A stretch of DNA of 45,482 bases from a virus. The stretch spans positions 1-45,482 of IMG/VR virus record IMGVR_UViG_3300005747_000028. One strand, given 5' to 3'. A model generated the notes under the pieces. It made no database searches and had not been told where the DNA came from. It saw only the letters and a list, made by a program, of their open reading frames with translations. Every line of letters starts with the position of its first letter. The stretch's first letter is position 1. The translations under genes were made by a program, and so were the position numbers. Of the stretch, positions 451 to 39,980 are shown piece after piece.

Positions 451-1486
451 TGGTTTTCTGACCGTTTCCTAGCATGGTAGTTTTTAAGGCTAGACTACCA
501 ATACAACCTAGATTTTAATAACGTATAAAATCACTAAAAAGTCCGGACCTTCCTTTATACACTCAGGCCAATGTGTGGCAAACCAACTTTAAAAAGTACT
601 CTTGGTGTTGACGTACAAAAAGGTCAAAGAAAGGAGTTTTACCAAGAGTACTTTTTAAAATCAAAAGGCTTGAGATTACAGCCTTAGTAGTATAGCTTTT
701 GAAGGATTATGGACCGTGTGCTAGACGCTCTTTCCCCTCTTATCCACATACTCGGTTTCCCTAAGCATGTACCATACCATGACTGCCTTTTATTTTACAG
801 GTCAGGCGGTGGACCTATGCTAACAAGCTACTCAAGTTTTCAATCCCCGTTGAAGTTTTACCTCCATTAGTCTCTGCTAAGAGATTACGAGTCAATCTAA
901 CTTAACATCATTAACCTTGCGAGTCTCAGATGCCGACATTGCCGAAGCTGCCGGATTAAGCCATTTTAACTTGTTACTGACAGGTGTCTTTGCGTTTACA
1001 ATTGTAATAGGATTTGAACCTATAACACTTTCCTATGCAGGGAAATGATCTACCATTGATCTATACAAAGATTAACTTCCTAAGATGTGCACCTGCCGGT
1101 GAATCCCATACCTTTTGGGTATGAAAATATCACACACCTTCTGCTTTTGCCTTGCGAGCTATTCACCGTTCTTCTCGACTCCGGTTTAACCCTTCCTCGA
1201 TTGTACTGCTAAATGCCCTTGCTTGCGACTCAGACTATTTAACTACCCTTTGTCAGTATTTGCTCCTTAGTTTTGCATGTAAGTAGTGGTTGCGCCACTT
1301 TGTCCTCACCGTCGGCCCGGACTCAAACTCACCTAAGTTACCAAACAGTCTCCACTAGAGTGAAGCCATTGCTGACTTGGCTTGCGTGCTATGGGTGTTT
1401 TACTCCCCCGGAAAGTTGAAAGACCTTCCCGTATCAGACTGTTACCAGCCCTTGCCAATTTAATTCCCACACGCGGGAATATTCGT
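451..1486 (-). ncRNA. Candidate giant structured RNA (GOLLD-like)
   Basis: About 1 kb inside the tRNA array has no credible reading frame but is dense in hairpins. Examples are a perfect 19-bp stem (588-606 with 641-659), GGTAGT/ACTACC near 475-498, AAGGCT/AGCCTT near 666-687, CATACC/GGTATG near 1107-1123, AGTGG/CCACT near 1286-1300, AAGCCA/TGGCTT near 1373-1394 and ATTCCC/GGGAAT near 1463-1482. A tRNA-Cys-like cloverleaf lies within it. Size, tRNA neighbourhood and an embedded tRNA match published GOLLD RNAs of phages, which form large RNA multimers; ROOL is the alternative. Family membership is inferred, not aligned. Minus strand is assumed from the neighbours. Transcription could come from the promoter at 1913-1942. 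Confidence 0.5.
1002..1069 (-). tRNA. tRNA-Cys-like (GCA) cloverleaf inside the large RNA
   Basis: T arm ATAGG-TTCAAAT-CCTAT, anticodon arm TTTCC-CTGCATA-GGAAA (anticodon GCA) and D arm GATC/GATC are all well formed. The acceptor stem is only about 5 bp (TTGTA/TACAA) and CCA is absent. A normal tRNA-Cys lies at 2906-2979, so this copy probably serves as a domain of the surrounding RNA or needs CCA addition. Confidence 0.5.
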
Positions 1487-3337: not shown

Positions 3338-3429
3338 TGGTAGTCCATGAAGGATTTGAACCTTCCCGTCGGGGTATATCAGACCCTCAGAGATTATAAG
3401 TCTCCGCCGCTCACCAAGAGCTATGGACT
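3338..3429 (-). tRNA. Class II tRNA with anticodon TAT (Ile by codon, AUA)
   Basis: GGAGA-CTTATAA-TCTCT gives TAT, reading AUA. The gene is 92 bases with a real variable arm (GGGT/ACCC), a body typical of Leu, Ser or Tyr tRNAs, not Ile. Bacteria usually read AUA with a lysidine-modified CAT tRNA. The amino acid charged is therefore uncertain. Confidence 0.75.
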
Positions 3430-3434
3430 AAAAA

Positions 3435-3510
3435 TGGTGGGCCTGCTCAGATTTGAACTGAGACTCAACCGATTATGAGTCGGCTGCTTTAACCATTAAG
3501 CTACAAGCCC
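3435..3510 (-). tRNA. tRNA-Met (anticodon CAT)
   Basis: CCGA-CTCATAA-TCGG gives CAT. Acceptor GGGCTTG/CAGGCCC, A73, CCA encoded. A lysidine-type Ile2 cannot be excluded. Confidence 0.85.
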
Positions 3511-3518
3511 ATAAAACT

Positions 3519-3549
3519 ATTATAACACTAGTAACCAGTAACTTGTCAA
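3519..3549 (-). promoter_or_regulatory. Internal promoter of the tRNA array
   Basis: TTGACA (3544-3549) and TATAAT (3519-3524), 19 bases apart, lie between tRNA-Thr(TGT) and tRNA-Met in one of the few wider spacers. The long spacing makes it weaker than its neighbours. Confidence 0.45.
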
Positions 3550-3624
3550 TGGTGCCCCTTCAAGGAATCGAACCCTGTTCAGATGCTTACAAGGCAACTG
3601 CATCACCATTTATGCTTAAGGGGC
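3550..3624 (-). tRNA. tRNA-Thr (anticodon TGT)
   Basis: GTTGC-CTTGTAA-GCATC (one T-T mismatch) gives TGT. Acceptor GCCCCTT/AAGGGGC, CCA encoded. Confidence 0.88.
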
Positions 3625-3685
3625 GTAAAAATAGAACATGACAATCCGGCTCTAATTGCCTTATGTGAGAGGTTCTATAAAATTT

Positions 3686-3763
3686 TGGTGCGGTGACTCG
3701 AATTCGAATCGAGACCTCTAGTTTGGAAGACTAGCGTGCTTGGCCGTTAAACACTATCACCGC
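3686..3763 (-). tRNA. tRNA-Gly (anticodon TCC)
   Basis: CTAGT-CTTCCAA-ACTAG gives TCC. Acceptor GCGGTGA/TCACCGC, CCA encoded. Confidence 0.92.
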
Positions 3764-4518: not shown

Positions 4519-4592
4519 AAATATATCAGCGGTAATGATTAAAGACCTTTACTCTTATTATCGGGACGGTCATGCGAGAACTGATATAAAAT

Positions 4593-4678
4593 TGGTAGCG
4601 CAGGTGGGATTCTAACCCACGAGTCTCGGAAGACACAAGGTTATGAGCCTTGCTGCTTATACATCTTGCTTCCGCGCT
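4593..4678 (-). tRNA. tRNA with anticodon CAT and a class II variable arm
   Basis: CAAGG-CTCATAA-CCTTG gives CAT. The variable region holds a stem (GTCT-tccg-AGAC), unusual for Met or Ile2 tRNAs. Acceptor AGCGCGG/CTGCGCT, CCA encoded. Charged amino acid uncertain. Confidence 0.75.
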
Positions 4679-4687
4679 ATAAAAAAA

Positions 4688-4757
4688 TGGTGGCGTTTTA
4701 CCCATTAAACTAACAGAGTTTCCCCCGTGCAAGATTCGAACTTGCATTTCCACCGGT
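4688..4757 (-). tRNA. Circularly permuted tRNA-like gene (T arm before D arm)
   Basis: Read 5' to 3' on the minus strand the parts are: anticodon 3' strand GGTGG, variable AAAT, T arm GCAAG-TTCGAAT-CTTGC, acceptor 3' strand ACGGGG, a GAAA tetraloop, acceptor 5' strand CTCTGT, TA, D arm GTTT-AATGGGTA-AAAC, G, and anticodon 5' strand CCACC followed by A. All four helices pair, the acceptor partly through G-U pairs. The element has normal tRNA length and normal array spacers. The ends therefore lie in the anticodon loop and the acceptor is closed by a GNRA loop. No anticodon remains, and the new 3' end reads CCACCA. Confidence 0.7.
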
Positions 4758-4765
4758 CTATATTT

Positions 4766-4840
4766 TGGCACCCCCGAACGGTTTCGATCCGTCGCCTCCG
4801 GCGTGACAAGCCAGAACTGCTCCCATTACAACACGGGGGT
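4766..4840 (-). tRNA. tRNA-Asp (anticodon GTC)
   Basis: CTGGC-TTGTCAC-GCCGG gives GTC. ACCCCCG/CGGGGGT acceptor with G73, the Asp identity base, and encoded CCA. Confidence 0.92.
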
Positions 4841-4927: not shown

Positions 4928-5000
4928 TGGCACAGTGGCTGGATTCTATACCAACATTCCCCCTACTCCACGTAGGGGCGCTCTAGTTGAACTACACTGT
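4928..5000 (-). tRNA. tRNA-like gene with G33 (Trp-like body, loop CGTGGAG)
   Basis: Acceptor ACAGTG/CACTGT, G73 and encoded CCA. The D region GTAGTTCAA resembles bacterial tRNA-Trp. The anticodon arm CCCTA-CGTGGAG-TAGGG has G33 and nominal anticodon TGG. Read in the opposite direction the loop is CTCCACG, which would give U33 and a Trp CCA anticodon, so a flipped anticodon hairpin is possible. T loop has eight bases. Probably not a normal decoder. Confidence 0.5.
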
Positions 5001-5007
5001 ATAAAAT

Positions 5008-5081: not shown

Positions 5082-5131
5082 ATTGAAATTCTAGTTTAAC
5101 ATGACCTTTCGAACCATGTCAACATTTAATT

Positions 5132-37694: not shown

Positions 37695-38978
37695 TCAACT
37701 ATCGGTTACGTCTTCCCACTTGAATTTACGAACCATGTGGCCATTTTCCCACACAACAGGCATATCTTCAAACCGACCGGCAGGAGAAGCCTTACTTGGG
37801 TCAGTCTTGGGGTTCTTGCGAACGTTACGCCATTCACCGTTTACTCGGATAGCAGAGCATTTCATTGCCCAACGACCCCAGTCGCGGTCACAGTGTTGAA
37901 GTAGGGCACCACCCATACCGAAGGCAATGTTATCAGCACTCCAACCTTCGCTAGTAAGCACAGTCAAGATGTTTTCAATGGTTTCTTGGTCAATGCCGTC
38001 ACCTTGGATTACTCGGACGTGATTGAGGACTTTATATCCCTTGTCGTTGACTTCGTAACCGAACTTAGTACCGAGATTAGAGACTGTACGCAGTACAACA
38101 TCCACCGGGTCACCTGAATCAGGGCGAACAACAACAATACCATTACGCTCTTTAACCTCATCAAGCAGTGAACCACCCCAAATATTAAGAACAGCGTTAT
38201 CAAGATCATAAGAGTCGGATACAGCAGCAATAATAGGAGCGTCACTATATTGATTGAGCATGTTTCTAAAAGCATGTTCTTCTCCGTCTTCACCCCAAGA
38301 GGTTACTGTACTATGCTCCATTGCAGGAATACTATATCCAGCCATATCTGCGTCGTAAAAGCGACGAGCATACAGGAGGGCTTGCAGCGTGTCTGAGCCT
38401 TTGAAGTTGGTCAGGTGGGCCATGCCTCCTAGTCCTGCACTTTCGGGGCTAGAAACGCCTCTGGAGCCGAAATCATGCAGTTTGAAGTCCAACCCCGATA
38501 CGTCACCAGTTTCCTCAAGGAATCTCTTGATAACCTGACGAATATTGTACGAAATCGTAGCCACAGTTGATGGATACCAAACTCGAAGGAGCATGGTTTC
38601 GACATAAGTGGTCAACCAGTAGCACTTAGGGTCTGTGTTTTCAACAGAAGCAAGGACCGTTCCCGGCTTGTAGATTTTACCTTCTGGTACGGCTCGAATA
38701 CGAAGGGGAAGTTGGCCGTTATATTCGTCCATGATGTACTGCCAACCCTCTTTGTGGAAGGGTACACCGTGCACCCCTAACACTTCGTCGGCTTCATCAA
38801 TATCGGCCTGAGTGATGCCGAGATCAATATTCTTCAAAATAGCTTGGAAACCAAACCATTTAGTGTCTGAGAAAGCTCCTTCTCGCGCCATAATGTGACT
38901 GTGTACGATCTCGGTCCCTTCAGGGTACTGTACGTGCATAGATGCTTTGTAGCTATCTGAATCTAAAATAATGTTCAT
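37695..38978 (-). CDS. nadV: Nicotinamide phosphoribosyltransferase (NAMPT)
   Basis: 427 residues, somewhat shorter than the 460-490 usual. LDSDSYKASMHVQYPEG at the start, HDFGSRGVSS near 168, LTNFKGSDT near 189, AMEHSTVTSW near 219 (catalytic His), VVRPDSGDPVDV near 286 (PRPP/NMN-binding Asp), IQGDGID near 322 and FGMGGALLQ near 351 are all present. It makes NMN from nicotinamide and PRPP. Nine bases separate it from the NMN adenylyltransferase, its partner. Confidence 0.96.
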   Translation of the reverse strand: MNIILDSDSYKASMHVQYPEGTEIVHSHIMAREGAFSDTKWFGFQAILKNIDLGITQADIDEADEVLGVHGVPFHKEGWQYIMDEYNGQLPLRIRAVPEGKIYKPGTVLASVENTDPKCYWLTTYVETMLLRVWYPSTVATISYNIRQVIKRFLEETGDVSGLDFKLHDFGSRGVSSPESAGLGGMAHLTNFKGSDTLQALLYARRFYDADMAGYSIPAMEHSTVTSWGEDGEEHAFRNMLNQYSDAPIIAAVSDSYDLDNAVLNIWGGSLLDEVKERNGIVVVRPDSGDPVDVVLRTVSNLGTKFGYEVNDKGYKVLNHVRVIQGDGIDQETIENILTVLTSEGWSADNIAFGMGGALLQHCDRDWGRWAMKCSAIRVNGEWRNVRKNPKTDPSKASPAGRFEDMPVVWENGHMVRKFKWEDVTDS

Positions 38979-38987
38979 AACTAACTC

Positions 38988-39980
38988 CTAGTCTTTGATA
39001 CGTGTAACGAAATATTCCAAAATGTCCGAATGGTCCTCAAACAGAGGTGGAACCTTGTCTAAAGGAAACCACTTTGCTGTTTTTGCGTCATCGTTACCTT
39101 TAATATGAGGCAATTCTTTGGAATTGTCAAGTTTGAAACCGAAAGCGTGGCTAAAAACACGCCCTCGGAGTGAGCGATCAGGATGATCGAACAAGTGTGA
39201 CGCGAATACAGAGCCTCGGAGGACTTTTTCGGGTACTTTCAACCCTGTTTCCTCCCTAAGTTCCCTAATTGCGGCGTCAAAAAGCTTTTCTTTAGGGTGG
39301 ATATAGCCACCGGGTAGTGCCCAAGTCCCTTTTCCGGGCGCATTTTTACGTTCAATGAGAAGAACATGGCCGGATTGAATTACTACGGCGTCAGCGCAGT
39401 TAAAAGTAGGGTCATATGGGGCATTGGCCCACATTTGGGTGTGTTTTTCTTGGAACTCGTATTCGTCGTAGACTAAACGACCAAATTCGCCGGGAGCAAA
39501 GAACTCCCGAGGGTTGTATCCGCACATATCAATAATTTTTTCTTTATTATTATTGAGTTCATTGGTATACATGAGGTGACGAATGTCTGTGGCGTTGAGC
39601 ATTTTCCCATCGTGAAGATAGGGGGCCACGTTTAGTACTGCCCACGGTTGGAAATTTAGCAGGTATACAGACGAATCATCTTTTTCATATCCCACTATTT
39701 TTACGTAACTTTCCCCGCGACGAGCAAGTTCTCCATCAACAACCTCACGTACTTGACGATGCCATAGTGCGTCATTGTATAGGTAATCTTTAATGGGGAG
39801 AACAGTAAGCATTGGAAAATGCTTTAAAATCATAGACTTACGTTCTTCAAAGGTGAAAGGATTCTTTAAATCTCGAACCCGCCCGGAAGAGCCTACGAGA
39901 ATCACAGGGTTTTGTGCCTGTGAAATAAGGTGAATATGACCTTTATGTAGCGGTTGAAACCGCCCTATAATTACATCCAT
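38988..39980 (-). CDS. nadM: Bifunctional NMN adenylyltransferase / Nudix hydrolase
   Basis: 330 residues. The N-terminal half is a nucleotidyl transferase: IIGRFQPLHKGHIHLI (HxGH) and NATDIRHLM (the ISxTxxR equivalent). The C-terminal half holds a full Nudix box, GGYIHPKEKLFDAAIRELRE-ETGL. It joins NMN and ATP to give NAD+, and the Nudix part probably removes ADP-ribose or other nucleotides. Same architecture as cyanobacterial and KVP40-type enzymes. With NAMPT it forms a two-step NAD+ route. Confidence 0.95.
   Translation of the reverse strand: MDVIIGRFQPLHKGHIHLISQAQNPVILVGSSGRVRDLKNPFTFEERKSMILKHFPMLTVLPIKDYLYNDALWHRQVREVVDGELARRGESYVKIVGYEKDDSSVYLLNFQPWAVLNVAPYLHDGKMLNATDIRHLMYTNELNNNKEKIIDMCGYNPREFFAPGEFGRLVYDEYEFQEKHTQMWANAPYDPTFNCADAVVIQSGHVLLIERKNAPGKGTWALPGGYIHPKEKLFDAAIRELREETGLKVPEKVLRGSVFASHLFDHPDRSLRGRVFSHAFGFKLDNSKELPHIKGNDDAKTAKWFPLDKVPPLFEDHSDILEYFVTRIKD

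What the first reader, a model, noticed from the sequence alone, without database searches (positions are those of the whole stretch)
4688..4757. Circularly permuted tRNA gene in a phage tRNA array
The arms of this tRNA appear in the order T arm, acceptor, D arm, with the anticodon-stem strands GGTGG and CCACC at the two ends. The acceptor strands ACGGGG and CTCTGT are joined by a GAAA tetraloop. D arm (GTTT/AAAC around AATGGGTA), T arm and both other stems pair perfectly or with G-U pairs, and the element has normal tRNA length. Permuted tRNA genes are described from algae and archaea; I know of none in phages. With no anticodon loop and a closed acceptor it cannot be a standard decoder. It could be a decoy for anticodon nucleases or a precursor that is cut and rejoined (inference).
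Basis: partly seen in the sequence, partly recalled or inferred. Interest (0 to 1): 0.9.

Follow-up and report, generated by a model that had tools for sequence, protein, structure and literature searches.

The report
Stand-alone tRNA-mimic RNA in phage array
Between two ordinary tRNA genes this phage encodes a small RNA that folds like a tRNA with its arms in rotated order and its amino-acid end sealed; it matches the tRNA-mimicking half of bacterial Y RNAs without their protein-binding half, and similar stand-alone copies occur in other phages, including laboratory mycobacteriophages, where its function can be tested.

Summary
On the minus strand (4754 to 4688) lies a perfect circularly permuted cloverleaf: anticodon-stem strand, T arm, acceptor stem closed by GAAA, D arm, anticodon-stem strand. 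It sits 10-11 nt from ordinary tRNA genes on both sides and overlaps no ordinary tRNA. No shuffled window equals it (0/1500).

The reading "permuted tRNA gene, unknown in phages" needs correcting. The same permuted module is the tRNA-like half of bacterial Y RNAs (YrlA; Rfam RF02553 matches at 29 bits, cut-off 69). What is unusual is that it stands alone: no Ro60-binding stem, and no Ro60 gene in this 45-kb record.

I found about 15 further stand-alone copies beside or among ordinary phage tRNA genes. They include complete mycobacteriophage genomes (MrMagoo, Rey, Reindeer, GenevaB15), where compensatory changes keep the helices paired. Records with array-embedded copies lack Ro60 (0/13); records with other copies mostly have it (26/39).

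No joining of the flanks gives a valid anticodon loop, so re-splicing into a decoding tRNA is unlikely. Best explanation: a non-decoding tRNA mimic that occupies tRNA-binding proteins (PNPase or tRNA nucleases). Structure is well supported; function is inferred. A second, undescribed, covarying RNA lies at 4521-4590.

The parts
4688..4754 (-). Stand-alone permuted tRNA-like RNA (whole element, 67 nt including a 3' A)
   Evidence: Fold -20.5 kcal/mol, exact permuted cloverleaf; covariance model hit 43.6 bits; Rfam YrlA 29.2 bits, below cut-off
4750..4754 (-). 5' terminus: anticodon-stem 3' strand GGTGG (tRNA positions 39-43)
   Evidence: Pairs fully with 4689-4693
4729..4745 (-). T arm GCAAG-TTCGAAT-CTTGC, preceded by 4-nt variable loop AAAT (4746-4749)
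   Evidence: Five pairs, canonical T loop
4713..4728 (-). Acceptor stem ACGGGG / CTCTGT sealed by a GAAA tetraloop (4719-4722)
   Evidence: Six pairs, two of them G-U; in relatives in kind the capping loop varies in length and sequence while the stem stays paired
4695..4710 (-). D arm GTTT-AATGGGTA-AAAC, preceded by U8 A9 (4711-4712), followed by G26 (4694)
   Evidence: Four pairs; A14 and GG kept as in tRNA
4689..4693 (-). 3' terminus: anticodon-stem 5' strand CCACC (tRNA positions 27-31)
   Evidence: Pairs with 4750-4754
4766..4840 (-). Upstream neighbour, ordinary tRNA-Asp(gtc), 11 nt away
   Evidence: ARAGORN, Rfam
4596..4678 (-). Downstream neighbour, ordinary tRNA (CAT anticodon), 10 nt away
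   Evidence: Rfam tRNA 35 bits

Best explanation
It is a stand-alone, non-coding tRNA mimic built like the tRNA-like module of YrlA-type bacterial Y RNAs: a circularly permuted tRNA body whose acceptor stem is sealed and whose anticodon-stem ends are open, encoded as one slot of a phage tRNA array. It keeps the D-loop and T-loop features of the tRNA elbow, so it should bind proteins that recognise the tRNA body, but it cannot be charged or decode. Most likely (inferred) it occupies such proteins during infection: PNPase, the known partner of the Y RNA module, or host tRNA nucleases, for which it would be a competitor without a cut site. Shown: the predicted structure, its conservation by compensatory change in relatives in kind, its place in arrays, the lack of a Ro60-binding stem and of a Ro60 gene in the record. 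Inferred: expression, partners and effect.
For: Exact permuted cloverleaf as minimum-free-energy fold and beyond chance (0/1500). Rfam YrlA match spanning the element, E 2e-4. Same module with Ro60-stem flanks in many viral and bacterial records. Stand-alone copies next to tRNA genes in unrelated phages. BLAST-found mycobacteriophage family: 97.6% of pair cells paired, 8 of 21 pairs with changes on both sides, 0/500 shuffles. Ro60 (TROVE) in 0 of 13 array-embedded versus 26 of 39 other records, P 3e-5. Outer-stem z +1.4 in the window versus mostly -1 to -6 in the Ro60 group. Reviews describe the YrlA tRNA-like domain as PNPase-binding and a substrate of DusA and TruB (PMC8394870); PMC7790460 suggests it may competitively inhibit an anticodon nuclease.
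Against: No expression, binding or phenotype data. The window is a 45-kb record, probably a fragment, so Ro60 could lie outside it. The Rfam score is well below its cut-off and could reflect tRNA-likeness alone; descent from Y RNAs is not proven, and origin from tandem tRNA genes is possible. Four of the 13 array-embedded records are one mycobacteriophage lineage.
Confidence: 0.6

Rival explanations
1. True permuted tRNA gene: the anticodon-stem ends are joined, RNase P and a 3' nuclease open the acceptor cap, and a working tRNA results, as in red and green algae and Thermofilum.
For: Gene order (3' half, short linker, 5' half) is that of permuted tRNA genes, whose linkers range from 1 to 74 nt (PMC3978253). 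MrMagoo encodes RtcB.
Against: No joining of leader and trailer yields a Y32-U33-R37 loop in the window or in 13 of 16 array-associated elements, whereas 25 of 26 ordinary window tRNAs tabulated have U33 and all 26 have a purine at 37. RtcB is present in only 1 of the 7 array-associated records tested and the RNA_ligase family in 2 of 14. The capping loop changes freely. The array already holds ordinary tRNAs for nearly all amino acids.
Confidence: 0.07
2. A working Y RNA in the full sense: it acts with a Ro60 protein encoded elsewhere in this phage or by the host.
For: Rfam YrlA match; other phages carry Y RNAs beside Ro60, e.g. Mycobacterium phage Colt gene 224 'Ro-like RNA binding protein'.
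Against: Only 10-11 nt separate it from the neighbouring tRNAs, with no complementary outer stem (z +1.4) and none of the Y RNA flank motifs. Complete genomes with stand-alone copies have no TROVE gene.
Confidence: 0.12
3. Functionless leftover of two tandem tRNA genes that lost their outer halves.
For: A tandem tRNA-Met/tRNA-Val boundary in Klebsiella phages resembles the MrMagoo element over about 55 nt, so such an origin is plausible.
Against: Compensatory changes in acceptor, T and anticodon stems in the mycobacteriophage family; full pairing in the window; recurrence in many unrelated phages.
Confidence: 0.08
4. A processing or structural spacer of the array: the tRNA-like fold recruits RNase P or protects the precursor without acting in trans.
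For: In this group it lies beside tRNA genes, sometimes with 0-5 nt gaps (L593).
Against: Most array gaps have no such element, and related mycobacteriophages (Bongo, PegLeg) lack it cleanly at the same place.
Confidence: 0.13

Closest known systems
YrlA-type bacterial Y RNA (Rfam RF02553), tRNA-like module
   Same: Same order of arms, acceptor closed by a loop, anticodon stem as the connecting stem, tRNA-like D and T loops.
   Different: No Ro60-binding basal stem, no Ro60 gene in the record, located as one slot inside a tRNA array.
Circularly permuted tRNA genes of algae and Thermofilum (PMC3978253)
   Same: 3' half precedes 5' half with a short linker between the acceptor strands.
   Different: No anticodon loop can be restored from the flanks; no evidence of re-joining.
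Permuted tmRNA (Rfam RF04321)
   Same: Acceptor strands joined by a linker in the precursor.
   Different: No tag-coding part; only a chance-level 12-bit match over the tRNA-Asp/Pro region, not the element.

Membership tests
YrlA-type bacterial Y RNA | tRNA-like module with T, acceptor and D arms in permuted order | tested here: met
YrlA-type bacterial Y RNA | Basal stem formed by 5' and 3' ends that binds Ro60/Rsr | tested here: not met
   10-11 nt flanks, no complementarity beyond shuffles (z +1.4), motif absent
YrlA-type bacterial Y RNA | Ro60 (TROVE) gene in the same genome | tested here: inconclusive
   Absent from the 45-kb record, which may be a fragment; absent from complete phage genomes with stand-alone copies
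YrlA-type bacterial Y RNA | Score above Rfam RF02553 gathering cut-off (69 bits) | tested here: not met
   29.2 bits; the 13 scanned loci that carry comparable modules also show no RF02553 match over the cut-off
YrlA-type bacterial Y RNA | Modification by DusA/TruB and binding to PNPase | not testable with these tools
   Needs biochemistry
Circularly permuted tRNA gene | 3' half upstream of 5' half, acceptor strands separated by a short linker | tested here: met
Circularly permuted tRNA gene | Complete anticodon loop recoverable at the junction | tested here: not met
   No combination gives Y32-U33-R37
Circularly permuted tRNA gene | Circular intermediate and mature tRNA | not testable with these tools
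   Needs RNA from infected cells
Ordinary tRNA gene | Detected by ARAGORN or the Rfam tRNA model in normal order | tested here: not met

The most novel reading that the evidence does not exclude
Phage tRNA arrays repeatedly carry dedicated non-decoding, uncleavable tRNA-shaped decoys, assembled from halves of adjacent tRNA genes independently of Y RNAs, which shield the phage's real tRNAs from host tRNA-cutting defences.
Probability: 0.22. Interest if true: 0.85.

Novelty: new variant of a known kind. Interest (0 to 1): 0.6.

Why it matters
Annotation of phage tRNA arrays misses this class: the element is unannotated in the MrMagoo and Rey records. If it works as a tRNA-body competitor, it would be an RNA counter-defence that cannot be cut at an anticodon or charged, and it would show what the Y RNA tRNA-like module does without Ro60. 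Because copies exist in complete genomes of phages grown on Mycobacterium smegmatis mc2 155, the question is directly testable.

Tried and rejected
RNR-based relatives of the window phage have no comparable tRNA array nearby. Exact element sequence and its 5' half: no match in viral contigs. Plasmids: none. A covariance model from rotated window tRNAs was abandoned because the alignment was poor; model R1 from stand-alone and Y RNA modules was used instead. Bit scores of R1 alone are not decisive, since tandem tRNA boundaries score up to about 48 bits. L177 looks like a tandem of tRNAs without anticodon arms and was not counted as stand-alone. The first structure string for A2 was off by one column and was redone. 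A GNRA cap as a conserved feature was rejected: it came from the search pattern, and caps vary in BLAST-found homologues.

Full report
Observation. Ordinary tRNA finders see nothing there even at lax settings. Rotated back with any of eight tested seven-base loops it is called a tRNA by ARAGORN every time, and the rotated letters match whole phage tRNAs weakly, about 72%.

Chance. A scan for the permuted descriptor scores the element 25. In 1500 dinucleotide shuffles of the window, both strands, the best score was 23. Boundaries of ordinary tandem tRNAs are the harder control: 3 of 1139 reach 25 in loci that were themselves enriched for the pattern. Those have two complete tRNAs; here there is none.

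What it is. Scans of IMG/VR and GTDB for the pattern T arm, GAAA, D arm, filtered by structure and by absence of overlapping tRNAs, returned many permuted modules. Most have long flanks that tend to pair with each other and share motifs such as GTTACTTC and TGTCG: I read these as Y RNAs of the YrlA type, whose tRNA-like domain resembles the D, T and acceptor arms (PMC8394870). Rfam's YrlA model matches the window element with 29.2 bits, E 2e-4 for that search, below its cut-off of 69. So the fold has a precedent, in bacteria and in phages with Ro60. An example is Mycobacterium phage Colt, with such an element just upstream of a gene annotated 'Ro-like RNA binding protein'.

What is different. 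The window element has only 10-11 bases to its tRNA neighbours and no complementary outer stem (z +1.4). Similar stand-alone modules next to or among tRNA genes were found in L220, L238, L282 (two in tandem), L293, L313, L440, L474, L524, L542, L593 and in mycobacteriophages. L593 fits exactly between two tRNA genes, with the same GGTGG/CCACC stem as the window. Counting records in which the module lies within 12 nt of an ordinary tRNA, 0 of 13 have a TROVE (Ro60) gene, against 26 of 39 others, Fisher P 3e-5. Four of the 13 are one mycobacteriophage lineage; counting it once leaves about 1e-4 by my own arithmetic. L443 (19-26 nt from tRNAs) does have TROVE. Many records are fragments, but MrMagoo, Rey, Reindeer and GenevaB15 are complete genomes.

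Evolution. The mycobacteriophage set was found by BLAST from one member, not by structure, so its covariation is not built in: 97.6% of pair cells paired, 8 of 21 pairs changed on both sides, 0 of 500 shuffles as high, slid controls 30-46% paired. Changes fall in the anticodon, T and acceptor stems; the acceptor cap varies freely. GenevaB15 appears to carry a second, degenerate copy in tandem (my reading of the sequence). Bongo, PegLeg and Nanosmite lack the unit at that place.

Mechanism. Re-joining into a decoding tRNA would need a Y32-U33-R37 loop from the flanks; the window and 13 of 16 array-associated elements offer none, and RNA ligases are not consistently present. Charging is excluded as drawn by the sealed acceptor. 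The kept D and T loop features suggest that the tRNA elbow matters. For YrlA this domain is reported to bind PNPase and to be modified by DusA and TruB (PMC8394870), and PMC7790460 proposed that it may inhibit an anticodon nuclease competitively. I therefore favour a trans-acting competitor for tRNA-body-binding proteins; this step is inference. I would put the structural identification at about 0.85 and any specific function well below that.

Second RNA. Bases 4521-4590 (minus) hold another structured RNA: an almost invariant core TGACCGTCCCGATARTAAGAG...AAAGGTC inside a terminal stem that differs in nearly every phage yet stays paired (7 of 8 terminal pairs change on both sides; 0/500 shuffles reach the observed pairing or covariation score). 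Rfam has no convincing family for it. It may be the more novel object in this window.

Limits. Stand-alone copies outside the mycobacteriophages were selected by pairing, so their pairing is not independent evidence. The primary Y RNA papers (Chen 2014, Wang 2018) were not held; statements about them rest on the reviews cited.

Noticed in passing
4521-4590 (minus strand): Undescribed small structured RNA: core TGACCGTCCCGATARTAAGAG, found exactly in 14 viral contig stretches plus Rhodococcus phage Francesca and Sulfitobacter phages; terminal stem covaries strongly (7 of 8 pairs changed on both sides, 0/500 shuffles on covariation score), GACC/GGTC inner helix invariant, no Rfam family, often inside tRNA arrays.
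   Followed up: partly
667-1140 (minus strand): GOLLD RNA (176 bits) with a tRNA-Cys inside it (998-1071); MrMagoo also has GOLLD about 0.35 kb from its stand-alone tRNA mimic.
   Followed up: no
4929-5003 (minus strand): Degenerate tRNA-like slot ending in CCA, called tRNA-Pro(tgg) only at lax thresholds.
   Followed up: no
5091-5130 (minus strand): Gap between tRNA-Glu and tRNA-Gly holds an isolated T-arm-like hairpin GACATGGTTCGAAAGGTCATG, possibly another tRNA fragment RNA.
   Followed up: no
L281 (reverse-complement 3377-3712), L110, L275, L503: Phage Y-RNA-like modules with an ACAGCAA flank motif in place of the usual GTTACTTC, in records where no TROVE gene was found; L281 has three in tandem.
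   Followed up: partly
L175, L417 and other Y RNA loci: Just before the module many Y RNAs keep what looks like a tRNA anticodon loop (TTTGTAA, CTGTTAA, CTTTTAA), suggesting repeated origin from real tRNAs.
   Followed up: no
37695-39980 (minus strand): Nicotinamide phosphoribosyltransferase next to a cytidyltransferase/NUDIX protein: a likely phage NAD+ salvage pair.
   Followed up: no
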